Shown: in pieces, positions 10,601 to 63,855 of the stretch
Numbering within the stretch: the stretch's first letter is position 1
How the letters are laid out: each line of letters begins with the position of its first letter
Source of the DNA: Patiria pectinifera
Taxonomy: Eukaryota; Echinodermata; Asteroidea; Valvatida; Asterinidae
Direction: 5' to 3'
Length of the DNA stretch: 64,000 nucleotides
NCBI GenBank assembly: GCA_029964075.1
Contig: CM057142.1
Span: forward strand, 4,107,770-4,171,769
The notes under the pieces: model-generated
Database searches by the model: none
What the model was told of the DNA's origin: nothing
The model's input: only the letters and a program-made list of their open reading frames with translations
Made by a program: the position numbers and the translations under genes

Positions 10601-13600
10601 TAAAATATACAAGTGATCAAAAACACTGAAAAAAAGTGTGAATCTGCATGACCGCTGACCCAATGCTAACACAGATGCAGAGATGTACTCATAATTTAAT
10701 CTTTGAAAGTCTTTACAAGTCTAATACAAGTCTTCTTTTCTGCAGTCAATTGACAACTTACTCAAATGAACTACGACAAAAGCATTCCTTTGTCTCTGTT
10801 AAAGGAGCACTGCATCCTGGAAAGCGCAACTGGGCTACAAAAGCGTTTAAACGAAATGGTATTGACTGGAAAGAACACTTAAAGGGAAGATACAACATTT
10901 GCAAACATCAAGAAACGAAATGATTAAATTATCACGAAATACCTTACTGGATCGTTAGGGAATGACAGTCTAAAGCATCCTGTAAAATCGTGTCTCCTGG
11001 TGTGCTGACATTTTCAAGAAAATTTGTATTTTTCCAACGCTGGTCGGCTGACCAGCGTTGGAGAAAACTGGCTTTTTTCAAAAACTGCTGAGTTTTTCAT
11101 AACAGTTGTTCCGCATTTTCTTTGCAATTGATTACACACCTGTGAAGGGGTACAAGCCTGCCAGACTGATTCTCTCACCTTACAATTCCACAAAGTCTAC
11201 AAATTTCTCTGTTTCATCTTAAGTGGTTCAGGAAACCAGACTACAAGAACATGATTGGTTTTCTTGGTTTTTCCAGCATTCACAAGTCCAAAATGTGAAA
11301 CAAGTCAGTTTAATAATATCTGCTATAACATACTAATCCTCCAAATCCATTTATTTCTGAAAATTGCAGCAAAAGCAAATGTTGTACATTTAAAAATAGA
11401 ATGTAAATATCCACACAACCATCCTAAATTGGCCACTTTTGTGTTATTCTTGCAAGAACAAACACCAAGGGTCAAAAGTTTGACTCTCAAAACTCAAGCT
11501 GCTCGGGTGTTTGTTTGTGCTTGTAAAACCATATGTGTGCACACACACTTGACGTGACCTGTAAATTGAATCCTCCGACAGGAGACTTGTATTTACGGTT
11601 GGAAATCCGATGTGTGTGCCACAAAATGTCCGCTGCATCAGAAGTAAACAACCGTTTATTTTTCCCCGTCTTTTCTCAGGAACAGTGCGACACTTGGTTA
11701 GCTTGCTTTCAAACAAGACCTTTGAAATCTAGGATAAGCAAACAATCTCAAACAATTTATTTTTGCGATTTCAGGACGACGTACCCCTTTGAACTCTCAA
11801 TACTTGTGATCAGAATTGCGATGTACTTTTCTTCAGTAAGAAGAGACATACATTGTAAGTAAGATGTAACATACGCCGGGTTGTACAAAAGATAGAGCTT
11901 TTGGAAAATTAATAATTGTCGATGAGAATCTCCTATGAACCCAAAAAGGCACGACACTGGTAACAGAAACCTTCATGTTGGCGTCAAATATTCAATGTAA
12001 AAGGTTAGCGTAGCCGAGTCACAAACTTTCCAATCATGACTTACCACATTTGCAGCAAATTTTCGGACTCTGAAGAACATGACCACGATAAACGTTGGTA
12101 GGAACTCCCAAATAAAGAGAACAATACTGAACGACAGGTAACGAAGTCCCTTCAGAGTTTGTATCATATCAGCCTGAAATCAAACAATTTTAAAAAAATT
12201 CAATTGGAAAACAGCTAAACCGAAAAAGTATTTGCATCCATACTTATAAATAAATTTTGTTTAGATTTTGTACTCTTACTTATGCAAGCAAGCAAACCAG
12301 TTCAGTTGTTTGAAATAGTACTTAGGCCTCAATAACTACAAGCAATTTTGATATTTCATCAAACAAAACATTATTTTCCTTACAAACGATCGACCAATTT
12401 ACACATGGTATAACATGCATGCATTAATTGCATTTCACAATACATAAGATTTTTTCCCAAAAAATTTTCATGCTATTTTAAGGGCTAAGTCCTTACAAAG
12501 CATGCTTCTCTACCATCATCTTTTCGTGCAAATGTAACATGACTTTTGAAACAAAACGCTTTATCATCAATACAGGGCGAGGAAAAAAAAAAAACCCAAA
12601 TGTCGGGACTATTGTTTTATTGAAGTTCTGCATGTAGCACTTTCAAAATCAAGGACATGAAAGCCCAATTCATAAGCTTTCTTTTAGCACAAGAATCTTT
12701 CAAATCACTCATGTACTTTTCAAGTTACGGAATTGTAAACACAACCACTGTTTTAAAGTTCGTTTAGCAAAACGAAAACTATTCACACACATCCCTACGT
12801 GATTTGTGATGCGATCAAGCTAAATGAGTCGTTTATCAGGAACTTTCATTTGGAGATACAGGTCAAAATAAGGCCATCTCATCACATCTCTTGGTGTTCC
12901 AACTTCCATAATTTTTGAACTAAAGATGGTACCAGCATGCGGTTTTCACAGCAGAAATGCTGAGGTTGTGCTCTTTTCAAATCTGTAATAAACTTTTTTT
13001 TTACCAGGGTCGACAAACGACTCATGCAGCTTGATCGCATCACATTTGTTTTTGTTTTGCTGAAAGAATGCTGAACTTTTTTTTGTGATTCATGGACAGA
13101 ACCTTAAAACAGTGATTGTGTTTAAAATTCTGTAGCTTGAAAAGTACGTAAGTGATTTGAATGATTCTTGTACTAAAAGAAAGCTTATGAATTGGGCTTT
13201 TATATCCTATATTTTGAAAGTGCTACATGCAGAACTTCACTAAAACAATGGTCCCAACATTTGGGTTTCGGTTTGTTTTGATAGCTGAATGCCATTTTTA
13301 TCGGAATACAAGAAGAACAACTTGCTTGGCAATCAAAATACAATACAGATTAGGAGGACAAATCACTGGTTCGCGTGCGTATAGCATGAAATACACACGA
13401 CTAAGTATTTTCTGAATGTGCAAAAAGCAACAGTGTCTTCGCGTGAGCGTCTGGCATCGTCAGCAGTGCGTTCGAATGTCTCTCCCAGTAAAGGTAGGTA
13501 AAGGTAAAGGGGCCGAACCTGTGTTCACAGGAACAGAGTGCCCATCTCTCTTTCGAAGGGATTGGGCCAGACTCGAGTCCGTGAAACGCTGCTGTGGGGG

Positions 13601-19600: not shown

Positions 19601-22600
19601 GATGCGTTCGTCTGAATTTTTTTTTAAATCACTGGAATTATGAACCCTTACAACAGAGGAACTTAGTAAGCCATGAACATTTCCGAGTTCCTGACCCTTT
19701 CTATAAATAGAAATCACGCCATACATCTAAGGTACATTATACACTGTCTGTGAGAGTGCAGCACTATTGTGCCTCAGGGAATTCTGGTGTTTAAAACTTG
19801 TGTAAGTTTCCATTTTTATGAGGTGCTGATTGACAAAATGCATATTGACAAGCATTAAAGGTGTGCTGAAAATCATATTGTCATTATTTTATGTGGCATA
19901 AAATGTAGATTCCTTTTCTAAATTGCAATTTATTTTGCAATACAAAAGTTAGTCACTTACAAATGAGACATTGACGGAAAAAAAATCGGCCCATGTTTAG
20001 TATATTGAATTATTACTTTACAATTTTGAGCTCTGCCAGACAATAAGCATGCATTTATTTTTAAGTCTTCACACGATAGTGATTGAGTGCATACATGTGT
20101 ATTGCTGTATTATGACAAGCTACCACAGGACTGTTGTAAATTTGGCCAATCATGGTGCTGGATCAATGCAGGTTCAGGGGCCATTTATTGGCTTGTTTTT
20201 GAAGCCGGTCTTTATATCACATATTAATACACCAGCACATGCTCGATTCATGACCAATCAGAAGCTGTACAATGTACATGTATCAACTCTTCAAGGTATT
20301 TATTAATGTAATGTAAAGACTACAGTTCAGAATGGGTAATAACATGAGCAAAGTCTGGTGTGCCATAAATAGAAAATGAAACTGGGTAGCCGCGAAAAAA
20401 AAATAAGTAAATAAATATCCAAATGTCTATTCAGTAAAACAGTATTGGAATCAACTGATCAGCTTTGATAAAAAAAAATATATTTCGCATAGTCAGATAG
20501 TAGACCTTCATATACAATGTAATTACGGAGTACAATGTAGGCCTATAGTGAAACAAAAAAAAAATGTTTTGGGACTTGCATTTTGCACTATTTTCACAAA
20601 CGCCATGCACTTTCAGACAAGGAAACTATACAGTTAGACACTGATCATTTACCGCACACTAACCACATTTTGTCCAAACAAAAACAAATCTGCCAAATTT
20701 ATACAGTAAAGTGCTAAATGTACATGCACACATCATCTCTAAAAACTGATTGTGCTAGCTCACTGTTGTCAGCAATTTGTGTGCATTTAATTTAGCCCTG
20801 TACATGTACCTAAATCAAACATCATGTGTACAGAAATGCTGTATCAATAGCAAATTTGCTTATCCATGATTCTCTCAAAGACTCTCATAGCCTTCATTAT
20901 ATCATCCAACTCCGACTCACATTTTCATTTAGAGAATTTGGATTAGAAATCATACATGTAGTATTGTAAACGCCTGCTTGTAATACTGACAGCCATATTG
21001 GCAGCCATCTTGGATATCTCAATTCCCCCAAAAGATGCCGAGGTGGTGTCATGTGAATTTGGAATCAGTAGGTCAGTTAAAGGCCTATAAACCAGGAAAA
21101 ACCAGGTCAAAATAGGTTTTGCCCTTCATATCACCGACATATAAACACTGTATACTCAGTGTGTTACCTCCCGAGTGTAAGTTGGAAAAAATCACTCGGG
21201 TGAGACTCGAACCCACGACCTCCTGTACATTAAATTCGAACCAGCCAACCGATCCCGTTAGCTCGGTGGTCGAGTGGTAAGACATCTGCACTAGAAAGCA
21301 GGTCGTGCGTTCGAGGTCCCACCCGAGTGATGTTTTTTCCAACTTTCACTCGGGAGGTAACACACTGAGTATACAGTGTTTATACGTCGGTGAAGGGCAA
21401 AACCAATTTTGATTTACATCACCCCGACGCAAAAATCCCATCTTATTAAAAACCAGGTCAAATCAGGTTGGTTAAAATGTTGGGTTTTTTTTGGGCAATT
21501 GGACAAAAAGGAAATTCAAGTTTATTATCAAAGATCTGTTTGTCAGCAGAGCAGTACACTTTGATCCTTCACAGACCCAATAAACAGCATATTCACAGGG
21601 CCAAGTTCACATTTCAGTAATAACATCCCATTTTCCCCTAAATTTTGTATTATACTGTACACAAATCCAAGGACAATAAGGGGATAGGTTACTAGCTTTA
21701 CAGCACGCAACAAAGTCAAAGTAGTGCGGCTGTACGCAATCAATATTTTCATCACGACCAGTGGTTGACGATATTTTGTTACTTCTGCTGTATGTGCTTG
21801 TCAAAATAACAAATTTATGACTTCATTTAATCAAGAAACACTCCCTACCCTATCTGATGAATAGCCTACTTCTCCACATGAAAGCAAATTTAGACTGGGG
21901 CTTGGCATGATGGATTCACGACTATTTTATGTCTGAATGTGCAAAAATGAGCTTAATAATGAAAGGTTTGCGGAAACACCATGTGCGATAATTTCTCAAC
22001 TAAGAGAATGGTTCTGAAAAGAACCAGAGGTATAAACTTGACGTTCCGGTCAGTATGCTCTACCGTCTTCAGGAGAAGACGGTCAGAAGAGTCTTTCTCC
22101 TGGAGCACCGGAACGTTGCGCTTGGGCATACTCAGTTACCGTTTCCTTTCTCAACCAGAGAAATTATTATTCATCTATGGTCCGCAATAACTTCATTATT
22201 TAGTATCTCCACCATGCAAAGCCTCAAATCTTACTTAAAAATGAGCTTGTTTGCATGTGGGCGCATGGCAGCGATTGTGTTCAAGTACATGTATGTCATA
22301 TCTCTCTGTTGAGCGAACACTTGCGGACAGCGGCCATACTGCAGGCTAACTCTAGGCATTTGCTGTAGCATTCCTAAAAGTGTGGCACCAACTCCTCATC
22401 CTCTGAATTAAAAAAACTTGACCCATTTCTGACTTTGTGTACACATACATGTACCTCTAGCAGCAAAAGGCGCCACCCCCTTCCTTTGCACAACGGATGC
22501 CTTTTAAACTATGGGCTCCGTGCACAAGTACCCCATCAACGGCCAGAAAAGGAGAGTTGGGGGTGACCCAAATTGGTTCCCGGTCCATCCACTGCATATT

Positions 22601-32499: not shown

Positions 32500-32790
32500 A
32501 GCTTAACAATTCGGTAAAGTAGAAAGACTGCGGGTAACACCATGTGGAAACTAGTAATCTCTAAGTTGGAAGAAGTGTGGTTCTGAAAAGAAATGAACCA
32601 TGGTTGAGTGTAGAACTCGACGCCCGGACACTGTCCGTCCGCAGGAGGACGGCCAGAGCACATCCTAAACGTCGAGTTCTACACTCATCAACCAACCGGT
32701 TCTTTTCCGAACCACACTTCTTCCAAGAAGAGATTACTTTTTATGGTGTCACCCGCAATCTTTCTACTTTATCTCTTCCGCCATGCAAAG
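32500..32790. mobile_element. Stem-loop fold-back family, copy C (most complete)
   Basis: The arms pair from GTAGAAAGACTGCGGGTAAC at the left to CCGCAATCTTTCTAC at the right, through GGAAGAAGTGTGGTTC and ACGTCGAGTTCTACACTC. The centre is a CCGTCCGCAGGAGGACGG hairpin near 32636. GGTTCTTTTCCGAACC lies on the plus strand at 32698..32713. It is non-coding. Confidence 0.75.
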
Positions 32791-34447: not shown

Positions 34448-34550
34448 CAGAGCGTGAATTCATCAGAGCATCGCGTCCTGTTTGCAGGGTAGGGGGTACG
34501 GGTACGAGCGAACCTTGAGCGCGCGAATTTTTATGTATATTCCAAGCAAG

Positions 34551-35040
34551 ATGTCTTCAGCTTCGGAGGTAAAATCACTTTCCAACGAAATTAAATTGAA
34601 AACTATCGAAATGCACACCGCTGGTGAGCCACTTCGAGTCGTAGTATCGGGCTACCCAGAATTCGAGGGGAAAACTATCTTAGAAAAGCGTCGGTTTGCG
34701 CGAGAAAAGTTGGATCACCTTCGCAAAATGTTGATGTTTGAACCGCGCGGCCACTACGATATGTACGGGGCGATCCTGGTAGAACCTGACGTACCGGGCG
34801 CCGATCTCGCCGTACTGTTTACCCACAATGAGGGCTACGGCACAATGTGTGGTCACGGAGTCATTGCCCTGGGCAGATATGCTGTAGATCATGGGGTTGT
34901 CGTGCCAAAGCAGCCAGAGACCGAAGTAGGCGTGCAGTGTCCTTGTGGTCTGGTCAAGGCATTCGTGGAGTACGACGAGGAGAGGAAGAAGACCGGTCAA
35001 GTGAGATTCCACAGCGTACCTGCGTTTGCGCTTGCACTTG
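34551..35040 (+). CDS. L3HYPDH: Racemase-family exon 1 (first catalytic Cys)
   Basis: Encodes residues 1-163 plus the first base of Asp164. It ends at donor GTAAATGAT. Cys100 lies in MCGHG. Read-through into the intron would add only Gly-Lys before an in-frame TGA, so intron retention truncates the protein before the second catalytic site. Confidence 0.95.
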
Positions 35041-38000
35041 GTAAATGATTAGTCCGAGTAACTTGGACCCAACTTATCGACTTTTTTAACATTTGGACAT
35101 GGTCTCTCGATAGGATCCAAGCTAACCGCGAGCTGGACAACACCGTCCCAAAAACCAACATTTTCCAACAAAAAACATCAGATTTCACCTTCAAAACGGC
35201 CTCCAAATATAGATATGCCACCTGAGGTACAAGTAGACATCGATGATTAAGGTGGTTGTACTGAAGTTTACTTACGATCCGGAAAAAAGTGAAATTTTCC
35301 GTTCATTTTGGAGAGCTCCCCTCGCGATCTTGAACACGTTAAATTTCCGATCGTGTTTAATGTTTGAACGACGCGATTTCTTCTTCATGAGCGTACTTTC
35401 GATGGTCCCCGTATCCCGAGTGCGATTCCGTTACCGAGCGCGCGCGATGCATCGATTATGATAATGCACATGTATGTGTTTACAAACGTGATCATTATCA
35501 TAATCGATGCATCGCGCGCGCTCGGTAACGGAATCGCACTCGGGATACGGGGACCATCGAATGTACGCTGGGCATGAAGAAGAAATCGCGTCGTTCAAAC
35601 ATTAAACACGATCGGAAATTTAACGTGTTCAAGATCGCGAGGGGAGCTCTCCGAAATAAACGGGAAATTTCACTTTTTTTCCGGATCGTAAGTAAACTTC
35701 AGTACAACCATCTTAATCATCGATGTCTACTTGTACCTCAGGTGGCATATCTGGTAATTTGGAGGCCATTTTGAAGGTAAAATCTGATGTTTTTTGTTGG
35801 AAAATGTTGGTTTTCGGGACGGTGTTGTCCAGCTCGCGGTATTAGCTTGGACCCTACTATCGCCAGACCATGTCCAAATGTTAAAAAAGGCGATAAGTTG
35901 GGTCCAAGTTACTCGGACTGGTAAATGATGAAGTAGGCTTAGTTTAAATATGCCTAAATTCTGTAGATTTCTTGAAAATAAATAAACTTGCATGTTGCAT
36001 TCTAAATCTAATCTTTGTAAGGGTAGGTGGTGGTGGGGGGGGGGGGGGAAGCAGGTGGTATTATATTTCTGATAATCTGTCAGTGACAGTGTCATGTACA
36101 TGGTCAGATTTAGCATTATTTGTGAAATGTTTTAATGCACTTGGTGTCTTTGGTCGGCATGTTCTTAATTCCTTCTGACCCCTGGTAGTTTTGCAGAACA
36201 TCCTGCAAGTGCAACATGAAAATTAATACCCCCCCAAAAAAAACTCCAATCAAATCAAAAATCGTCCGATCCCCCCAACCCCACCCTGACCCCCCCCTCA
36301 CACCCACACCCCCACCCCGTGTAGTAAAGTGTTCAATTTTGAAAGTGAATTTTCAAAATGCTCTTATTTTAACCAGAATAAGTTTCCTGGGCTGAAATTT
36401 GGAATTAATATCCCTTTTCTAAAACTCTTCCATTTGCGACAAATAAACACACCTTGGAAATTCCTAGTTTTTGAGTAAAACCCATATATCTATTTCGTGA
36501 AAACCTTGTGGAGACCTATTCATCCATAGAAATTGCCCTGTGGAGACCTTTACAATGTTTTGTTCACTATTGTGTGTGAGTCTCCACAAGGCAGCGAGTT
36601 TGTGTAGGCAGGGAACAAAGAAATGTCTCCACAAGGATACAAATTTTGGAATGGGTGGTCAAGCCTTCCGAGTGGGAGTGTGTAGTAGCCTGAATTCCTT
36701 TTATTATTATTGGCAGCTGCACTTACGCAACGCGAGTAGCCAAGCGTGTCCTTCGCCTTATAAAGCAGCATTGGTTACATGCACGAGCCCCCAGTTCCGT
36801 GTTAGCTCAACCGGCAGCAAGACAGGCCTACATCGTCACGCTCCGCAATTCAAGTCTTCTAATTTCATTTATATTAGTCCGTGAGTTTTTGCTTCGTTGC
36901 CGTAGTGAACCGGTTTGGCAGTAGCATACAGCTAATAGGTGAGCTACGGTGACGTCGCATTTAATTATTACCTTTACTGATAACCCAGGTGGTTCCTTTT
37001 ATTTATTCTTCAGCACTTATAAATAAACACAAACCTTATTTAATTTTCATCGGCAAGAAAATACTGCCCAGATTATCTTATAATTTATAGACAAAAGTCT
37101 GTCAAATTTTATTTCCCTTTTTGGCAAAGTTAGCCACATAAACGTAATCTTTTTGGCAAAGTTAGCCACATAAACGTAATCTTTTTGGCAAAAAGTTAGC
37201 CACAGAAATTATTCAATTTATTATTCTAATTTGGCACCCAAAAAAAGTGCAATGGAGCATGACGCGTGCGCACTGCACTGGCAATCAACCGTGACTAGTA
37301 TGAGGTGAACAGTTGAGGTGCCGGTATGCCAGGTGTTCTGCAATTGTGCTGACCCCTGTACCTCTACCATCCAATTGTACTGAAAAGTAAGCACAATAGG
37401 TGGGCATGGACATCCAGACACTTCTAAAATATCCCTACCTTGTTCTTCGAATGATTTTCTTGAAACCAGATGTTTCTTGTGTGTGGAGTGCTGAAACCTA
37501 TAAAGAGTTGCATGCAAAATTAATGATAAGAGCATCGATTGACGTGTAGCACCTCCTGCACCTGTTTCAGAATACTCCTTCACAGGGCTGCAAGTGAGAG
37601 CTGAGAGTGAGAATTCGATGGAGCTTGATCAGAACTAATGTGAGCGGGAAGTGCAAAATCCTAGCGGCCTAGGGTTCAGGTCCCACTCAAGGGCCCTGGA
37701 AAATTTTGGATTCTAGACGCTTTGTGCCATCTGAGGCAATATCTGACCACGTTTACCAATTGTTTGAGCAAAAGATCATCATTAAGGCCTTAACGTCATT
37801 TTTGAGTTTGGAATCAATTATTATTATTTTTTTAGTGTGAGAAATCCTGTGTGGGCATAAGAGCGTGAGAATAATCTGAAATGCGGGAGTCTCACACTGT
37901 GAGAGTTGGAAGGCCTGCCTTCATAAATTCACTGCTCTGAGCTAATCCAACATCCTTTTGACACTTAATTTTTCTTAGATAGTGAAGTGAATGTGGAGGA

Positions 38001-39738
38001 ATACGGCAAACTCAAAGTTGACATCGGTTATGGCGGTGCCTTCTACGCCTTCATCTCGGCCCAAGAGTTTGGTCTAGATGTCAGGAAGAGTCGTGTCCAG
38101 GATATCGTGAAGGCTGCCACTGCCGTCAGCAATGCTGTCAAGGCCCAGCTTCCCATCCAGCATCCTGACAGTGACGGGAATGACCTGGACTTCTTGTATG
38201 GCGTCATTGTGACTGACGGGCAGGATGCATGGAGTGACCAGCCTACTGCTAATATATGCATCTTTGCTGATGCAGCGGTAATAATGTATGCTTTTCACTG
38301 AGCCACAAAGCGTTTGTCTAAAAAGTTCCACTTTTCAAATTTGCACTTGACATCCGTCGTAAAGTGTCTTAATGATCCATCCTGCATGGTTTGAGCTACA
38401 GAGGAACACAAATTAGTGCATCTGAAGCAGCGGTGTAGCTGGGGGGGGGGCACGCCCCCCATAAAAAGAAAATTTGGCATCCTGAGAAAGCACTGCTATA
38501 TGAGTTACCATGATTAGCTGAAAGAACATAAATTCCCTTTTTTCTGCGATTTTGTGCATATTTTTTTACCCAAACTTTTTGCAAGTGGATGTTTATTGTA
38601 ACGTCCCTTGGAAAGCGAATAGCTGTAGTTATTGTGTAATGTTGCCATGAGATACGTTTTGAACAGCGCCCCTATGGGAAGATGGTGTCCAGCCCCAAGG
38701 GCGGATCCAGAACACAATTTTTTTGGGGGGCCAAAAAAAAAATTGATCCCCCAAAAAAGTGGGTCTAAAAAATTACGGCGTGGGGTTCGGGGCCCGCTAG
38801 GGCCCCGAAAAAAATTTGGATTCTAGATGCTCTGTGGTGCGATCTGAGGCAATTTCTGATCACTTTAACCAATTTTTTTTGAGGAAAAGATGGTGGTGTA
38901 CTCATTGCCTGCCTTTATTGCGATGTCACATTAAAAAAAAAAAAAATTGGTTTCGTTTTGGGGGGGGCCATGGCCCCCTTTGGCCCCCCCCCGGCTGGAC
39001 CAGCCCCCGGCCCCTCCCCCCTCACTAGTTGATTTTACGGAGGGCAGTTGTCCGGTGAAAAAAACCTGTCTACCTTTCAGCACGGATGAAATTTTTTGGG
39101 CGCTCCCCCCCCCCCCCATTGTAACCTCAAGCCACCCTCCCCACACGCAAATAAATGTGATACTTCACTAATATGTAACGTCTAATGAGTAGAAAACAAT
39201 TACACACCAAACTGAGGTACATCGCCTCCTTAACAAACTTGTATGTATGTACATCATATGGTCAGATGTACGTTGGATTTTACAGAATTGCCCATTTGCC
39301 AACAAAATTCTCAGACATTTCATCAAGGAAAAGATGAATTCCTATTTCAGCAGCCAAGTTTGAGCATCAAGTCCAATATCAAAATAGTACTCTTCAGTTA
39401 TTGATACAGTTTGTGGAACTATATTTGGAATTGTCACACAAGATTTACTCCCTGCTCTGTAACGCCTCTCGCAGGTGGATCGCAGCCCCTGTGGGTCTGG
39501 TGTGACAGCCCGCATTGCCCTGCAGCATGCCAGAGGCCTGATAGCCCTTCAGCAGAGCCGTAGTTTTGAAAGCGGCGTCACCGGTACCCGGTTCACCGGT
39601 AAGGCCATCAAGACGACCAAATGTGGCTCCGTAGACGCAGTCATTGTGGAAGTCGCCGGAAGAGCAAACTACACAGGGGAGGCCACCTTTACTGTCGAGG
39701 ACGACGACCCAGTTGGATGTGGGTTTTTACTCAGGTAG
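34551..39738 (+). CDS. L3HYPDH: Proline racemase family enzyme (L3HYPDH-like) with Cys/Cys active site
   Basis: The coding sequence joins 34551..35040, 37979..38277 and 39475..39738. It has 1053 nt and encodes 350 residues; human L3HYPDH has 354. All junctions have GT/AG ends and consistent phases. Motifs in order are MHTAGEPLRVV (residues 21-31), RRFAREKLDHLRKMLMFEPR (47-66), MCGHG with Cys100, YGGAFYAF, and DRSPCGSGVTAR with Cys269. The match to vertebrate L3HYPDH runs to the C-terminal DDDP..GFLL. That enzyme dehydrates trans-3-hydroxy-L-proline and has Thr at the second catalytic position. Cys at both positions is the arrangement of proline racemases and 4-hydroxyproline 2-epimerases, so racemase or epimerase activity is inferred. 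The start at 34551 has A at -3. An in-frame ATG at 34533 with a weak context would add six residues. Intron 1 carries a fold-back transposon directly at the donor. Confidence 0.93.
35050..35920. mobile_element. 871-bp fold-back element inserted at a splice donor
   Basis: The left end is TAGTCCGAGTAACTTGGACC and the right end is its complement, ending GGACTG. The two arms are nearly identical inverted copies along their full length, meeting near 35470 around a short spacer with CACATGTATGTG. GTAAATGAT occurs at 35041..35049 and 35921..35929 as a 9-bp duplication. TAG ends, near-complete palindromy and 9-bp duplications fit a non-autonomous Mutator-like fold-back. No transposase is present; the small open frames are mirror images of each other. 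Confidence 0.92.
37117..37205 (+). repeat. 32-bp tandem repeat, about 2.8 copies
   Basis: Units starting CTTTTTGGCAAAGTTAGCC begin at 37117, 37149 and 37181. The third has two extra A bases and is cut short. It lies in intron 1 of the racemase-family gene. Confidence 0.9.
37979..38277 (+). CDS. L3HYPDH: Racemase-family exon 2
   Basis: Encodes the rest of Asp164 to residue 263. It runs from acceptor TTTTTCTTAG to donor GTAATA. It contains DIGYGGAFYAF, a substrate-pocket block of the family, the SAVxxAVKAQ-like helix and HPDSDGNDLDFLYG. It ends FADAA, which runs straight into exon 3's VDRSPCG. Confidence 0.95.
38690..39010. mobile_element. hAT-like G/C-run element in intron 2 of the racemase-family gene
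   Basis: Begins CCAAGGGCGGATCCAG, followed by a GGGGTTCGGGGCCC hairpin, the GATTCTAGATGCTCTGTGG repeat and runs of G and C. No clean right end or 8-bp duplication was found. A further C-run lies at 39106..39118. Confidence 0.55.
39475..39738 (+). CDS. L3HYPDH: Racemase-family exon 3 (second catalytic Cys, stop)
   Basis: Encodes residues 264-350 after acceptor CTCGCAG, phase 0, ending GFLLR and TAG. The codon at the second catalytic position is TGT (Cys269) in DRSPCGSGVTAR. The remaining sequence, including FTGKAIKTTKCGS and VEDDDP, is normal for the L3HYPDH branch. Confidence 0.96.
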   Translation: MDRSPCGSGVTARIALQHARGLIALQQSRSFESGVTGTRFTGKAIKTTKCGSVDAVIVEVAGRANYTGEATFTVEDDDPVGCGFLLR

Positions 39739-43164: not shown

Positions 43165-43262
43165 TGGGAATAAATTCTCAAACTAAGAGAATGGTTCTGA
43201 AAAGAACCAGAGGTATAAACTCGACGTTCCGGTCAGTATGCTCTGACCGTCTTCAGGATGAA
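43165..43262 (-). repeat. Histone-stem-loop-like family, copy B (half)
   Basis: The minus strand reads CCTGAAGACGGTCAG, six bases, CTGACCGGAACGTCGAG, then GGTTCTTTTCAGAACC at 43193..43208. It is almost identical to copy A up to the centre, where it stops, so only one arm is present. Confidence 0.7.
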
Positions 43263-43588
43263 AGTTTTTGATGAAAGTTTGCAAACAACTTTCAATCTAC
43301 AAGTACACACTGGCAGACCTCTAGTTGCTTATGGTAAAGTACTATTCAGAATGAGGCTGCCAAAAGTGTTCTTTTTTTAATGTAAGGTAAGAACAGTAAG
43401 AATAGGGAATACCATGTGACACACCCCCAGCCAATCAAGAGACAGAATCTATGGGTTAGGAGTGATATGGTTCATTATGCTGCATTCGTTAGGAGGAACT
43501 GTCTACACATATCCCGATACCTCTGCAGCGGCTCAATCTGGAGTTTCATCCCCATATGGCGATTATTTTTTTAACGTCCAGTTATGTG

Positions 43589-44690
43589 TCATCGTGCACC
43601 CTCGGAAATCAACTTCTAATCAACGTCTATAGCTCAGACAAAATGCGTAGAAAACGATTTGCTATGTTAAAAAATTCAAAAAATGTCCCACGTATTGTTT
43701 TTATGCAAATTAGTGCCGCCATTACCGAAAGATCTATTTTTTACTATATCTTAGCAAATATTGCAGATAACTGAATAAATTAGGTGTCTAAACCCATTTT
43801 TTTCAAGGTCAGAAATCACAATAAAACTATTCTTGAAGTGACCACATGTGTCTGTGGCGTAGGAATATGCAAATTAGTGCCGCTAACAACAGAAAATCAT
43901 GTTTTTGGCATATCTCGGCCAATACAGCACATAACTACACAAGTAAGGTGTCTAAACCCATGTTTTGAGGGTCAAGTATCATTAGAAGACCATTCATGAA
44001 GTAACTGTGTGTCTTTGGCATGAAAATATGTAAATTCTAAAGTGCTGGTTTATCAAAAATCAGTGATTTTCAGCCAACATTTTATTCAATTTCAGCCAAT
44101 ATTACAGTTTATTTTGAATATGATGGCTTAAAATCAACTTTGATCATGCATTAGTGCTTATCAAAAACCAATCAGTCAACATTAGCTACAAAATTGACTG
44201 AGATCATTGGCTAAAAATCAAATTTCTGATAAATCGGCACTTGAGAATTTACATATTTACCTGCCAAGGACACACATAGTTACTTCGTGAATGGTCTTCT
44301 GATGAGGCTGACCCTCAAAACATGGGTCCAGTAGACATCTTATTTGTGTAGTAATGTGCTATATTGGTCGAGCTTTGCCAAAACCATAATTTTGCGGTAT
44401 TAGCGGCACTAATTTGCATATTCCTACGCCACAGACACATGTGGTCACTTCAAGAATAGTTTTATTGTGATTTCGGACCTTGAAAGAATAGGTTTAGACA
44501 CCTAATGTATTCAGTTATCTGCAATATTTGCTAAGATATAGTGAAAACTAGATTTTTCGGTAATGGCGGAACTAATTTGCATAAAACAATACCCGGGACA
44601 GTAATTTTTTTTTTTAACATAGCAAATCGTTTTCTACGCATTTTTCTGGTCTAAAGACGTCAATTAGAAGCTGATTTCCGAGGGTGCACG
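43589..44690. mobile_element. 1.1-kb fold-back element beyond the SLC16-like stop codon
   Basis: Left arm ATCGTGCACCCTCGGAAATC pairs with its complement at 44671..44690. Shared inverted blocks include AATTTGCATATTCCTACGCC (complement of 43859..43878) and GACACACATAGTTACTTC (complement near 44005). The centre is around 44140, within diverged TTTTCAGCCAA repeats. It is non-coding. Its right edge is about 75 bp past the stop at 44764, so it may form part of that gene's 3' UTR. Confidence 0.8.
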
Positions 44691-44763
44691 ATAACCCCTT
44701 CCTCCCACTAAACTAATGGAACGGGTTAGCTTTCATTCCCGCCGGCCGCAGGCCCCTTCAATT

Positions 44764-44888: not shown

Positions 44889-47800
44889 CTGTTGGGCAGG
44901 GGGAAAAAGCAACCAAATCGTCATCAACGCATATCGTTTAAACATATTTTTCCATTTTTTTGTATCTGAGAAAAACCAACAATATGCAGAAATTAATCGC
45001 ACAGTTCGTTATTGCCATAGCATGATGATTTTTGGACACTGATTAAAGTATACACGGAGCCATCCGTAACAGCTACAGGTTGTCCCACAAAAACCTAACA
45101 GTCGAAAACCAATTAATAAAGGTATAATATTGCGTGTGAAATTTGGAACAATTTCAAATTACCTCTTAAAAGTCAGATAACCAATCTAGTACAAACTTCA
45201 TTTCATTCAAATCGATGCATTGGAACAAACGTTATTCTTCATCAAACTCAAGGGCTGAAAGCCGTCTTGGACCACTTTCCTTGAAAGTGAGAAAGCGCAG
45301 TTAGAGAAACACACACGGTTTATTTCCTTTGTTCAAGAGTAACGTGTGACTTTTCTACGGCTTCGATAACTTGATAAATAAAAATTGGTCCAAGTGGTTT
45401 TTCAAGTGCAGTATTGTGATTGCTGTATCTATTGAACAAAACATCCTAACGAAACCAATAAAAAAAGCATTTGGAAGACCAATTATTCTACTCAGCAATA
45501 AGACTCAATTTTAAATACTATCCCAATGAAAACATGCCCGAATCGACTGTTCGTTTTTTTTTGTGGGACAACGTGAAGACGTTTGAGTACTGAATGAAAT
45601 AATGGCATTTTTGAACTTTCTGAAGTCGGGCTTTCTGAAATTGGAATTCGGGGAATACCAAGCTTTGTCCTGGATTTAAAAAACCACAGTAAGGCCAAAA
45701 AAGTCTTTGGTTTCTGGTATGGAGCTTGTTCCAAATGTGGTGCAGCGACGCGGCTTTGTTCCCCTTTATTTTTCTTCAAATGTCGGCTGATGACTGAATA
45801 TGGTGCCCGACTAAATTTAGTGCAAATATATGGGAGCCAAGAGAGGCCACATAAAGCTTATACTCGATCGCAGGATTCCAGTCAAACCACTGAGTTTGGC
45901 GGTTTTGAGATATCTTACATTGAAAAACAAACTTTTAAATTTTGCCAACGCGCATGGCTACGACGACGCACGCGCATACCAGAAACCGGAGACTTTGTAA
46001 ACCTTTACCAGTCCATCCTGTGCATGTAGCACCACACCTAATGACCTTATACATTGATTACAAAACACGATTTACCAACTTAGTGTTTTGGGCCGACCGA
46101 TCTAACGATTCAAAGTTTTATTTATTTATTTATTTATTTTACATCTTTTGACATTAAAATATATGATAAAATGAACAGGGGATGTCAAGCAAAAAAAAAA
46201 CCCACAAGTATAAAACTGTCATCTTAATTTGTTCATCCTGACCCCTGTTCAAAAAAAATATATATCAAGATAAAAAGATAATTGCACGGTACATGTTAAC
46301 CTTAACCATTGTTGAAATTATATAAATAAAACGATCGTTTAAAACAAGAAAAAAAATATCCAAGATGCAGTGCAAACCCATCTATAGTAAGTGTCTTTTT
46401 AATAAACATGAGTGCTACTTACCTGATGTGAGCCCACCAAGTGCTGCAGCCACTCCAGTAAAGACTCCTTGCCAGCCCAGTATACTAACTAATCGGTCGT
46501 CTGTCGAGAGGAACCGAGTCATGACTTCAACAGTTTGGTATATCAACGAATTTGCCGCCCCGACCACACCCACCACGGCCATTTGTCCAATGAACGGTCT
46601 GATAAAGGCGTGGCCGACCAGAGACACACACAGCAAACCACACCCGAAACACGCCAAAAACGTCATACGTGGTTTTAGGCTGAAACATTGAAGCACGGGG
46701 GCTACGGCTTTACCAATAATGTTACCTATCCCGAACGCAGTGGGCAAGAAAGACGCCTGGGTTTCCGTCAGGCCCTGGAATTGTCCGTGCGACACCATGT
46801 AGACCATCCAGCCACTGAACGCAAAGGCTACCGTACACCTGGCTGCAGTCAGCAAGACAAACCTGACATCTGTCAGAACTGCACAATCGAGAGCAGCGAT
46901 GAAGCGTCGGCAAAACTCTCTCGCCCTTTCACGCAGGTTTTGCTCTGGGAGATTTCGAGCTGCAGAGGAATTGCAAACAGAGGTACCATTGGCTTCTTCA
47001 TCAGCGTGCATGCTGTCATCTTCTCGAAGCACTTGGTACTCTTCACCGTCCGTCGAGGAGGAAAACTGATCCCTTTGCACTAACATACCACAGGCCACCA
47101 GATGAAATGAGACACCTCCCAGCACGAGCATGGTTCCTCTCCAGCCATAGGTGTCAACAAGTACCTGGGTGACGGGTCCTAGAGTCATAATACCTATAGG
47201 CATACCCATGGTTCCTATTCCAAAGGCGGTCACATAGTTGTCCTTGAAATACCAGGCCATTGCGGCAAAGTTGTTGAACCAAACAAACGAGGACCCTACA
47301 CCTAAAAAAACAAATACATATAATTATTTTGGGATGACATAATTATTTTGAGATGACAACCAGCTCTGTTTATATCTTACACGGATAGTTCGGTTCCTTC
47401 ATGATTTAGTATTTACTCTTTCAGAAAGAACACATGAAGTGGGGCTTCATTTTCCCCTGAAAAGCGCATTTCTTGGCCTTAGACCTATCGTCCTTATCTG
47501 GGGAGACATTGACGTGATAATACAATGTATTGAAATAATTCATTTTCTAAATATTTGAGGAGACAGTTCGGAAACATTATATTTTAAAACAAATTTCGAT
47601 TTTCTTGAGCATTCAGCGTTGAATTTATGAAACAGTATGTGAGGGCTTTGGAACCACTGCATAGATGGCAAGGTGTTTTTTTTCTCAGACGCATGGCCCG
47701 GGTGATCGAATGGTTTAGACATCTGTATTAGAGGTCGTGGGTTTGACTCCCAACCGAGCAAACTTTTGATGTTTTCTTTTATACGCAAACTCAATGGCAG

Positions 47801-48767
47801 TACTAGAGTATACAATAATGTTTATGACAACAAAATGGTCACATCAAGAACTATTTTCGGTCTGTCATCTATTCAACAATGGCCTATTTATAATGGTGTG
47901 TAATCGGAGACTCTACTAGCCTAATTCAAAACTTCACATTCATTTGCAAAATAAAAAAAGAGAGAACAACGAGTCACTGTATTTTGAAAGTACAACAAAA
48001 CTGAAACGCTCGCAGCAAATTATTAACTTTACCAGCCAATCCAATGATAAAGATGGCCACTTGAGAGACGGTCGTCGATATTGATGTCAACATGAAACCT
48101 GCGGTGCACAGAAGTCCACCAAAGATCATCATTGGACGGCTACCGAGAAGACGGGAGAGGGCTCCTACGACAGGCCCTGGAAAAGAGGAAAACTCGGACT
48201 TATACTTCGTGCCAGGGCTGGATGAAGATTTTTGGAGGCCCTGGGCCCAACAAAATGTGGTATAGGACCAATAAAAAACAAAACACAAACATAGGAACAG
48301 AAATGCTTATGGCAACGACATGATTTATTTATATCCATCTGCAGTGTCAAACTAAAATTTCGACAACTGATGATAGTACCGTTGCATGTTTTGGCCCGGT
48401 ACTTTCTAAGATGTTTGCAGAAAGTTGCGATATTAAACTTGGGAGCTCCTATGCTATATAGGCCCGGGCCTGTGCGTCAAATTAGTCTACTGTTCCATGC
48501 TCCGTGCATATGGATGTAAAAGGTAGTATTATGAAATAAAAATGAGATAAACTTACCCAGGCAGTTCAACGTCACGTTGTACCAGACTGCAATCCACCCG
48601 ATGATCCACAGGTCGCTATCGAAGTCATTGTTGATTGGAATGAGGAGGACGCCCAGCGCTTTGATGTTACCCATGGTCACAAAACAACAGACAAACAGCG
48701 ATGCCACCATCACCCACCCCCACTTGTCATTGTCGTAGGTCACCGCTGTGCCAGGTGATGACGCCAT
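44764..48767 (-). CDS. Monocarboxylate-transporter-like (SLC16) protein, four coding exons
   Basis: The coding sequence joins 48767..48557, 48176..48033, 47301..46423 and 44888..44764. It has 1359 nt and encodes 452 residues, with all introns in phase 1 and GT/AG ends. It is a major-facilitator protein of about 12 helices. The N-terminal signature NDKWGWVMV (residues 13-21) stands for the SLC16 [DE]G[GS][WF][GA]W motif. WYFKDNYVTAFGIGTMGMPIG near the fifth helix matches the YFxxxxxLAxG motif. A long acidic cytoplasmic loop (DGEEY..EDD..DEE) lies between helices 6 and 7. SLC16 members move lactate, pyruvate, amino acids or thyroid hormone. The substrate here is unknown and it looks like an orphan MCT rather than MCT1-4. 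The start ATG has G at -3 and +4. Confidence 0.92.
45693..45997. mobile_element. GGCCAAAA-ended miniature element, right tip lost
   Basis: The left end is GGCCAAAAAAGTCTTTGG and the right end CCAGAAACCGGAGACTTTG without the closing GGCC. TAA lies on both sides (45690..45692 and 45998..46000). The interior matches the element at 49217 in the opposite orientation, including AGTCAAACCACTGAGTTTGG. It is in intron 3 of the SLC16-like gene. Confidence 0.75.
46423..47301 (-). CDS. SLC16-like exon 3 (helices 4-11 and central loop)
   Basis: Encodes residues 119-411. The acceptor is TTTTTTTAG and the donor GTAAGT. The open frame begins upstream of the first Met with VGSSFVWFNNFAA, which continues the transporter. 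The C-terminal half has FSLKPRMTFLACFGCG and the GHAFIRPFIGQ segment, whose Arg sits near the family's charged TM8 position. Confidence 0.94.
47690..47820 (+). repeat. tRNA-derived SINE fragment
   Basis: GGGTGATCGAATGGTTTAGA, CATCTGTATTAGAGGTCG and GTGGGTTTGACTCCCAACCG parallel the tRNA-Ser-like head at 21256. The tail CTAGAGTATACAATAATG is a diverged form of that repeat's tail. It lies in intron 2 of the SLC16-like gene. Confidence 0.65.
48033..48176 (-). CDS. SLC16-like exon 2
   Basis: A 144-bp exon encoding residues 72-118 with split Gly codons at both ends. The acceptor is TTTTCCAG and the donor GTAAAG. It reads PVVGALSRLLGSRPMMIFGG and ends IIGLAG, matching helices 2-4 of the family, with the conserved GSRP loop. 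Confidence 0.95.
48557..48767 (-). CDS. SLC16-like exon 1 (start codon, first helix)
   Basis: Encodes residues 1-70 plus one base of Gly71. The donor is GTAAGT. A TTTCAG 17 bp upstream of the ATG may be the acceptor of a 5' UTR intron, so the promoter is probably further upstream. Confidence 0.94.
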
Positions 48768-49216
48768 TTCGTGAGTTACTGAAAGCGATGCATGAAGAAC
48801 CCGTGAAAGATAAATATATTGCCCTTAAATAAGTTGTCGCAGTCACGTATACAGCCCCCAAACTGAACACGAATTAAGAGACTATCATTTGTCTTGTACA
48901 TACATTCTACTTCTTTTAATCAATTTCCATGATGTTCATTTTAAACAAGGACCCTAGTCTAGCAGCAGTAGACGATACCGCCTCTGAGGGGCCGCCCGAG
49001 TTAGTATTCGTTCTACTTGAGACTCGGCTCGAGTGAAGGCTGGCGCATGGTTCGAACAGAAAACGTCCGACTCGTAACGAATCCAGGAATCGATATTAAA
49101 AAGTGTATCAAACCATATCGGATTATGAGGATGTAATATTATGCCCCGTCAAACTTGAAGCACAAGCAAACCATATGGCAGCTGAATTATCTTTTATTTG
49201 TCTCATTGTATATTTA

Positions 49217-49580
49217 GGCCAAAAAAAGTCTCCGGTTTCTGGTATGCGCGCGCGTCGCCGTAGCCATGCGCGTCGGCAAAATGAAAACGTTTTTTTTTTC
49301 CAATGAAAGATGATGTCTCAAAACCGCCAAACTCACTGGTTTGACTGGAATCCTGCTGCTGCACAAATTTAACGTGTTTTTGGATTGGGCTATGGTCGAG
49401 AATAAGCTTTATGTGGCCTCTCTGGACTCCCATAAATTTGCACTAAGTTTAGTCGGGCACCATTTGCAGTCATCAGCCGACATTTGAAGCAAAAAAATCA
49501 GGTAAAAAAAAAAAGAAGCCTCGTCGCCGCACCACTTTTTGGGCAAGCTCCATACCAGAAACCGGAGACTTTTTTTGGCC
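49217..49580. mobile_element. GGCCAAAA-ended miniature element, intact
   Basis: The ends GGCCAAAAAAAGTCTCCGG are perfect inverted copies for about 30 bp. TTA lies on both sides (49214..49216 and 49581..49583). It is 364 bp with no coding. It is the best-preserved of four copies. Confidence 0.88.
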
Positions 49581-52381: not shown

Positions 52382-53149
52382 ACCTCAGCTGTAGCTTTTG
52401 CTTATCGTCGCAAAGAAATTCAGGAGCAATTTCTAAAACTTATTAAAAGGTTCCAAGGCGCAGTGCCTAGAATTGATTTCTTTATCAGACATGATACTTA
52501 CTGTGGCCTTTTGATAACACTTTGTGATTCGTCCCAAGTAGCGTTACCGACGCTCGTTTGTTAATTTAAGATTGCCCTTCAACGTCACCGAAGACCCTCA
52601 TTGAAATTATTTTGTACGTCAATGCCATAACGCGGCCTGCAGACCACGCCTCGCCCTTGGCCGGCCCAGGCTGGCACCCCAGCACTTGAAAGTACGGTCA
52701 CGAAGTTCATCGGGTGGTTATGAGTCCACAGAGGGCGCCCTTTCGGGTGAAAACACGGAGCCTAAATCCTCGAAAACTCAAGAGGGCGGTATTGAATTCC
52801 ACCGTTAATTTGGCAACTTGCATCGACGACAGGTGTTTCACCGTGATATCTATCTTGAATCGGCATATGTATGTATCGTGTTGGACGACACCCAGGTGCA
52901 GGCATCAGCTGAGGAGAGTTGTCAAAAATTCTTATCCATGCCTGTCCACGAATGATTTAATTTGTCTTGTGTAAGAAGGAATAATACTCAGCTTGTGTAG
53001 TAATTAACTGAAGGTGAAGCAGATCTGAAGCGTTTAACGTGGTGAGTAAGACTGGATTTTAACTTGTTCCATGTGTTCAGGCGCGACCGGACATGCCGGA
53101 GCCGGCAGGGTGTGCACGCCACCCGTGCTGCTTTCGGTGCGGTACAGAC

Positions 53150-53460
53150 TAGCCCCATAAATGTGGCCAATTTACTGGACTACCTCCGTAAATAAAGGCC
53201 ACACTTCCACCATGTACAAAAACATGTCGAACTTTGTCAAATTTTGATTTTCACATTTAGGCCTATAGGCCTTTTTAGTTTATTTTTGCTTAAGAAGCAC
53301 CCTCTTTATAGGCTAATCAGAAAGTGCTGCCTTTTTCAGATGTCTATTTTTCGTGAAATTTTCCAGATTCTTTTGCACACATTTGCATATCAAAATTTCA
53401 ACATGAAATTTCACGAAAATTAGACATCTGCATTTGCTTTTTCGGGACTCCATACTAGGC
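53150..53460. repeat. Partial older copy of the TAGCCCC fold-back family
   Basis: Starts TAGCCCCATAAATGTGGCC like the element at 53662, then has its own inner dyad TTTCGTGAAATTT / AAATTTCACGAAA. It breaks off at the outer element's target site. Confidence 0.65.
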
Positions 53461-53470
53461 CTACATCATC

Positions 53471-54233
53471 TAGCCCCACTTGTGTGGCCTCTGTATTGCT
53501 GCGCTGTACGTTAGGCCACGTGTCTGGTTTCCCAATCTACTGAGGAGTTTAGCCCGGAACTTGCACATGAGGACTCCAGAAAGATGTCTAAATTTCTCTA
53601 AAAATTTGAAGAAAGATTACCTTGTCTACCAGGAGGGCAAAAGATAAGACACCATACATTGTAGCCCCATAAATGTGGCCTATTTACTGGACTGCCTCCG
53701 TAAACATAGGCCACACATCCACATGTACAAAAATCGTGTCGACTTTGCCAAATTTTGATTTTCACATTTAGGCTTAGTTTGTAGGATTTTTTTGCTTTAG
53801 AAGCATACCTACCCTCTTTATAGGCTAATCAGAAAGTGCTGCCTTTTTCAGATGTCTAATTTTTGTGAAATTTCATGTTGAAATTTTGATACGCAAACGT
53901 GTAAAAATGAAATCTGGAAATCTGAAAAAGGCAGCACTTTCTGATTAGCCTATAAAGAGGGTGAGTATGCTTCTAAAGCAAAAAAATCCTACAAACTAAG
54001 CCTAAATGTAAAAATCAAAATTTGGCAATGTCAACACGTTTTTTGTACATGTGGATGTGTGGCCTATGTTTACGGAGGCAGTCCAGTAAATAGGCCACAT
54101 TTATGGGGCTACATACCTTGTAGAATACAACTGTATGTATGTAAAAAAATTGCCAAAAAAAGGTGCGCCAGGCTTTGGACTAAACTCCTCAGTACTGTAG
54201 CGCAACAATACCGAGGCCACACAAGTGGGGCTA
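53471..54233. mobile_element. Outer TAGCCCC fold-back with 9-bp duplication
   Basis: The ends are TAGCCCCACTTGTGTGGCC and its complement. TACATCATC lies at 53462..53470 and 54234..54242, a perfect 9-bp duplication. The arms also pair at CTGAGGAGTTTAG and its complement near 54182. The arms are separated by a second element, so without that insert the element is about 300 bp. Confidence 0.9.
53662..54111. mobile_element. Inner TAGCCCC fold-back nested in a relative
   Basis: The 450-bp element is almost wholly palindromic, with ends TAGCCCCATAAATGTGGCC. The flanks CATACATTG (53653..53661) and CATACCTTG (54112..54120) form a 9-bp duplication with one mismatch. The arms meet near 53885. It has landed inside an element with the same end type. 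Confidence 0.9.
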
Positions 54234-63581: not shown

Positions 63582-63855
63582 TAGTGGGCAATTCCATGGT
63601 TACTCACTTTACATTTTTGATGTACTTTTGAGTTTCCTTGGGCTGTAATTACCTTACTGAAAAGGTTTAATAACTGTTATCCCCATGGTAGAACGAGTAG
63701 ACCTAGACCTACCTAAGCACCAAAGATGACATCTAGGTCTACTCTATCTAACATGGGGATAACAGTTATTAAACCTTTTCAGTAATGTAATTACAGCCCA
63801 AGAAAACTCAAAAGTACATCAAAAATGTAACGTGAGTAACCGTGAAATTGCCCTA
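63582..63855. mobile_element. 274-bp fold-back miniature element
   Basis: Left arm TAGTGGGCAATTCCATGG and right arm the complement of TAGGGCAATTTCACGG. Pairing continues through AAGTACATCAAAAATGTAA and GGTTTAATAACTGTTATCCC to a centre near 63712. CATG lies next to both ends but could be chance. There is no coding. Confidence 0.85.

What the first reader, a model, noticed from the sequence alone, without database searches (positions are those of the whole stretch)
35041..35929. Transposon target duplication is exactly a splice donor
Seen: an 871-bp fold-back element is flanked by GTAAATGAT, which is bases +1 to +9 of intron 1. Exon 1 ends at 35040. The second copy at 35921 is also preceded by G, so it looks like an equally good donor (CTG/GTAAAT). 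Inference: the insertion preserved splicing because the duplication rebuilt the donor. Use of the distal donor would put an 870-nt palindrome and an early stop into the mRNA. It is a natural example of a transposon tolerated at an exon edge by target-site duplication.
Basis: partly seen in the sequence, partly recalled or inferred. Interest (0 to 1): 0.8.

Follow-up and report, generated by a model that had tools for sequence, protein, structure and literature searches.

The report
Jumping element duplicated a splice donor
In what looks like a sea-star genome, a hairpin-forming transposon landed exactly on an exon-intron border and left a copy of the splice signal on each side; two sister genes without the insert show the original site, so the event is real, but it is a neat example of known behaviour rather than a new kind of system.

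Summary
An 870/871-bp fold-back DNA transposon (35050-35919/35920) sits at the start of intron 1 of a proline-racemase/trans-3-hydroxy-L-proline-dehydratase gene, flanked by GTAAATGAT. Two intact sister genes on the same contig (coding identity 97.3-97.4%) carry the empty site with one GTAAATGAT and the same exon frame. The element's family has 1359 end matches in the genome and 9-bp target duplications in 33 of 37 T...A-ended insertions.

The proximal donor is the ancestral donor, unbroken through +9. What the duplication added is a second donor at 35920/35921, equal or slightly better by sequence; its -1 G comes either from a 10-bp duplication that took in the last exon base or from an A-to-G change. 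I expect the proximal donor to dominate, because it is made first and the exon side of the distal one is paired in the predicted stem; but predicted accessibility of +1 to +6 is the same for both, and no RNA data were available. Nothing suggests that the family targets donors. Ordinary mechanism, unusually clean natural example.

The parts
34551..35040 (+). Exon 1 (coding) of the proline-racemase/L3HYPDH-family gene
   Evidence: Reading frame, Pfam match and alignment to human 7qpo; paralog matches of 97.1% and 94.5% over 509 and 542 columns
35041..35049 (+). Proximal target-site copy GTAAATGAT = intron 1 bases +1 to +9 (ancestral donor)
   Evidence: empty site in two paralogs
35050..35920 (.). 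Fold-back (long inverted repeat) DNA transposon; last base 35920 is G where the family has A, or belongs to a 10-bp duplication
   Evidence: Inverted repeats, family copies, arms 93.4% identical
35921..35929 (+). Distal target-site copy GTAAATGAT, potential alternative donor (CTG/GTAAAT)
35041..37978 (+). Intron 1 (with the element); 1001 and 1013 nt, not counting +1..+9, in the two empty paralogs
37979..38277 (+). Exon 2
39475..39738 (+). Exon 3 with stop

Best explanation
A non-autonomous fold-back DNA transposon of a family with 9-bp target duplications (Mutator-like in architecture) inserted into one of three copies of the gene after that copy split from the other two. The staggered cut spanned intron bases +1 to +9 (or exon -1 to +9), so each side of the insert kept a full GTAAAT donor. 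The exon-side donor is unchanged and is most likely the one still used, with the element spliced out inside intron 1. The distal donor is a by-product: it can be used in principle, but then gives an mRNA that stops two codons past the normal junction, a probable NMD target. Shown: duplicated target, empty site in two paralogs, intact frame, family behaviour. Inferred: order of events, proximal dominance, low distal use, NMD.
For: Two paralogs with the empty site CTTG/GTAAATGATGAAGT; window 34541-35049 aligns to L032 1501-2009 and window 35919-36083 resumes at L032 1999. All three copies encode 350 aa with the same three exons; window copy vs paralogs dN 0.016-0.018, dS 0.059-0.060. Family: 666+693 end matches at up to 2 mismatches, 0 in the reversed control; 33 of 37 T...A-ended TSD-bearing insertions have 9 bp, 2 have 10 bp, 2 unclear. 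U1 duplex energy is -5.3 for proximal, distal and paralog donors. The 30 nt before the distal donor are 0.00 unpaired, against 0.30-0.33 before the proximal one; over -3..+6 the proximal donor is 0.54-0.56 unpaired and the distal 0.42-0.43.
Against: No transcript evidence exists here. By recalled donor frequencies the distal donor scores higher (2.65 against 1.02 bits), so it could win. Over +1..+6 the two donors are equally unpaired (0.63-0.65 and 0.63-0.64), and the distal site is no less accessible over -3..+6 than the donors of the empty paralogs (0.34-0.42), so structure is only a weak argument. The folds are of naked RNA segments. The empty-site copies are paralogs, not orthologs or alleles, so precise loss or gene conversion in their ancestor is not formally excluded.
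Confidence: 0.82

Rival explanations
1. The insertion made a working two-donor switch: the distal donor takes a sizeable share, so the insert lowers the output of this gene copy through stop-containing mRNA, and this is tolerated because two intact sister genes exist.
For: Distal donor is equal or better by sequence and as accessible over +1..+6 as the proximal one; its -1 G is atypical for the family; two intact sister genes exist.
Against: Exon side of the distal donor is fully paired in the predicted stem; it would define an exon 880 nt longer; the coding frame is still intact, with dN below dS.
Confidence: 0.12
2. The element is older than the gene duplication and was removed precisely from the ancestor of the two empty copies.
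For: Arm divergence from the family consensus (2.2-2.5%) is of the same order as half the paralog dS (0.03), so age alone does not decide.
Against: Both empty copies lack any footprint; cut-and-paste elements usually leave footprints (recalled).
Confidence: 0.04
3. Introner-like: the element created the intron.
For: A splice site lies inside the target duplication, as reported for some introner families (PMC9860276, passages).
Against: The intron is present without the element in both paralogs, and its acceptor lies about 2 kb beyond the element.
Confidence: 0.01

Closest known systems
Tm1 Mutator/Foldback family of root-knot nematodes (PMC3169594, passages read)
   Same: Long fold-back inverted repeats averaging about 93% identity between arms, an example element of 1080 bp, target duplications of 8-10 and most commonly 9 bp in 45 of 53 elements, MITE-like forms
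   Different: Different host and end sequences; here no transposase-bearing member was linked to these ends
Introners built on DNA transposons (PMC9860276, passages read)
   Same: A 5' splice site recruited from a target duplication in some families
   Different: Here the intron already existed; no new intron was made and the acceptor is not the element's
MITE-associated alternative 5' splice sites, e.g. mulberry (PMC6593561, passages read)
   Same: Element next to an alternative 5' splice site
   Different: There splice-like sequence motifs are invoked; here the donor comes from the duplicated target

Membership tests
Mutator-like fold-back transposon | Target duplication of about 9 bp (8-11) | tested here: met
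   33 of 37 T...A-ended insertions have 9 bp, 2 have 10 bp, 2 unclear; the window copy fits 9 or 10
Mutator-like fold-back transposon | Long, near-complete inverted repeats | tested here: met
   Arms 93.4% identical over 438 columns; stem of roughly 400 bp in the fold
Mutator-like fold-back transposon | MULE transposase carried or supplied by a partner with the same ends | tested here: inconclusive
   30 PF10551 matches in the genome; 2 of 30 loci inspected in 5.0- and 5.5-kb stretches: one had no such end, one had a single end pointing the wrong way to flank the ORF
Introner | Insertion creates the intron; element spans donor to acceptor | tested here: not met
   Intron 1 present in both empty paralogs; acceptor at 37978 lies about 2 kb beyond the element
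Transposon-derived alternative 5' splice site | Transcripts using the new donor | not testable with these tools
   No RNA data available

The most novel reading that the evidence does not exclude
The duplicated donor together with the hairpin between the two copies forms a structure-gated tandem donor: pre-mRNA folding decides between the full-length mRNA and a 165-codon, stop-containing one, and the rare terminal G at 35920 was kept or gained because it matters for that balance.
Probability: 0.08. Interest if true: 0.6.

Novelty: new member of a known kind. Interest (0 to 1): 0.33.

Why it matters
It is an unusually clean natural experiment: two sequence-equivalent donors flank one hairpin, and two nearly identical sister genes in the same genome serve as uninserted controls. 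It could measure how the spliceosome chooses between equal donors and how a long intronic stem affects that choice. It also illustrates why target-site duplication makes some exon-edge insertions tolerable.

Tried and rejected
Rejected: donor targeting by the family. Of 35 target sites with T...A ends and a 9- or 10-bp duplication, 1 holds a donor-like word (GTRAG, GTAAAT or GTAAGT): L088/89, TGTAAGTGT, which abuts another copy's end. The window's own site is not among the 35. A weak preference shows in the symmetrised sites (70 sequences from 35 sites, no significance test): G at duplication base 1 in 50%, and A in 50% and 59% at the sixth and fifth bases before the duplication; this is far from a donor consensus.

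Rejected: introner origin (see membership). No second haplotype as control: exon 1 has 3 matches in the assembly, the gene and its two paralogs. Not found: matching direct repeats at the outer edges of seven other inverted-repeat regions of the window, with a simple script. Led nowhere: a genome-wide count of ends with a non-T terminal base (searches unanswered). The first partition-function run gave impossible values (accessibility part) and was redone with rescaling. One search failed on wrong paralog starts and one search used a wrong exon 2 end for the window; both were replaced. An Rfam scan of the window found nothing at gathering thresholds. Five other ORFs offered to Pfam in the rejected one search were not searched again.

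Caveats on counts: 73 end pairs were examined and 39 bear a target duplication; the other 34 include many pairings of ends that are not partners. In one search, 73 of 77 ends have T first; the four others are the window's right end, L006 and two ends in L055. But 30 of the loci came from a search whose pattern began with T, so that share is biased upward; one search shares this bias for the terminal base, not for duplication length. Dropped: 5 of 52 arms, over 15% diverged. Papers: six searches about transposon duplications, introners and splice sites listed no title that I recognised as this exact arrangement; I saw the listings, and passages of three papers, so this is not a claim that none exists.

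Full report
What was checked. The two GTAAATGAT copies are at 35041-35049 and 35921-35929. Between them lies a near-perfect palindrome; its arms are 93.4% identical over 438 aligned columns. As single-stranded RNA the region 35020-35960 folds at -767 kcal/mol against a mean of -251 for 20 shuffles.

The gene. Exons 34551-35040, 37979-38277 and 39475-39738 give 350 aa that match Pfam Pro_racemase over profile positions 2-324 of 325. The best solved relative is human trans-3-hydroxy-L-proline dehydratase, with no gap at the exon 1/2 junction. The closest listed homolog is from Acanthaster planci (82%), then Asterias amurensis (71%), so the host is probably a sea star. Donor and acceptor are placed by homology and by the paralogs, not by transcripts.

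The empty site. Exon 1 finds three places in the genome: the window and two paralogs about 9.7-9.8 Mb away on the same contig (coding regions C14:13875441-13878476 and C14:13912821-13915732). In both, the exon runs into one GTAAATGAT followed by GAAGTGGGCTTAG; the window has GAAGTAGGCTTAG after the distal copy. Window 34541-35049 matches L032 1501-2009 and window 35919-36083 resumes at L032 1999: the 11-base overlap is the repeated stretch. All three genes have an intact frame; window against paralogs dS 0.059-0.060 and dN 0.016-0.018; the two paralogs differ from each other by dS 0.008. The simplest order is duplication, then insertion into the window copy.

The family. The element has 168 matches in the genome, the window's own included (the tool calls such counts lower bounds), and 1359 end matches at up to 2 mismatches in the 613.5-Mb assembly, with none in the reversed control. 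Ends are TAGTCCGAG...CTCGGACTA. Of 73 end pairs examined, 39 carry a target duplication; 37 of these have T...A ends, and 33 of the 37 have 9 bp, 2 have 10 bp and 2 are unclear. The window copy and L006 are the two exceptions at the terminal base. In both, the repeat can be read as 10 bp with one terminal base missing, or as 9 bp with a terminal base changed to match the neighbour. For the window this decides whether the G before the distal donor is copied from the exon or is an A-to-G change. I cannot tell which. The window arms differ from the family consensus by 2.2% and 2.5%; the median of 47 arms (of 52; 5 very diverged ones dropped) is 2.0%.

Which superfamily. Nine-base duplications and fold-back arms match Mutator-like fold-back elements such as Tm1 (PMC3169594, passages). 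The genome has 30 MULE-domain matches, but in the 2 of 30 loci inspected none was flanked properly by these ends. So it looks and works like such an element; formal membership is unproven.

How splicing probably goes. Proximal and distal donors have the same +1 to +9 and the same -1 and -2; they differ at -3 (T against C). With recalled donor frequencies the scores are 1.02 and 2.65 bits; with the family's usual A at -1 the distal site would score -0.69; U1 duplex energies are -5.3, -5.3 and -1.8. In predicted folds the 30 bases before the distal donor are fully paired (0.00 unpaired), against 0.30-0.33 before the proximal one. Over -3..+6 the proximal site is 0.54-0.56 unpaired and the distal 0.42-0.43, but over +1..+6 they are equal (0.63-0.65 and 0.63-0.64), and the paralog donors are no more open over -3..+6 (0.34-0.42). 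So structure argues only weakly for the proximal site. It is also made first during transcription and keeps the normal exon length (inference). I therefore expect mostly proximal use, without proof. A distal-donor mRNA would read GGT AAA TGA and stop at 35046-35048, giving 165 codons, with NMD likely (inference).

How surprising. If the genome has about 200,000 donors (an assumption), an insertion has roughly a 0.26% chance that its 9-bp duplication contains the GT of a donor (8 positions x 200,000 / 613 Mb). With some 680 copies (1359 ends halved, a rough figure because not all ends are paired) about two such cases are expected before selection (inference). One surviving case, in a gene with two intact sisters, needs no special mechanism.

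Verdict. As a phenomenon it is a new member of a known kind. Its value is as a natural test bed with built-in controls.

Noticed in passing
window 39475-39738 (exon 3), motif SPCGSG; paralogs on C14: The second catalytic position is Cys in all three gene copies, where human 7qpo has Thr (SPTGSG). Of the 120 listed homologs (of 7275 hits), 111 have Thr, 4 Cys (Asterias, Lytechinus, Callorhinchus, one unnamed) and 5 gave no motif match; Acanthaster has Thr. A Cys-Cys pair suggests racemase or epimerase rather than dehydratase activity (recalled).
   Followed up: partly
window 22010-22025 (-) and 43193-43208 (-): Two identical copies of GGTTCTTTTCAGAACC, a perfect match to a recalled histone-mRNA stem-loop consensus (0.07 expected), inside a 64-nt repeat 98% alike; an Rfam scan at gathering thresholds gave nothing.
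   Followed up: partly
window 43588-44695, 53143-54113, 63586-63853, 12583-13277, 45697-49575, 21131-21393, 32566-32726: Further inverted-repeat regions; a simple script found no matching direct repeats at their outer edges.
   Followed up: partly
G000 contig C1, first 3.1 Mb: 44 of the first 100 listed exact transposon ends fall here. Several of these loci share up to about 1.5 kb inward from the end at 92-100% identity, four of them beyond a 123-bp pair of ends, so they may be longer related elements or amplified arrays.
   Followed up: no
L088/L089, L025, L038: A junction reading GGACTA-CTGTAAGTG-TAGTCCGA recurs, as if two related elements sit end to end with a 9-base spacer.
   Followed up: no
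window 37117-37180: Two tandem copies of a 32-bp unit CTTTTTGGCAAAGTTAGCCACATAAACGTAAT in intron 1.
   Followed up: no
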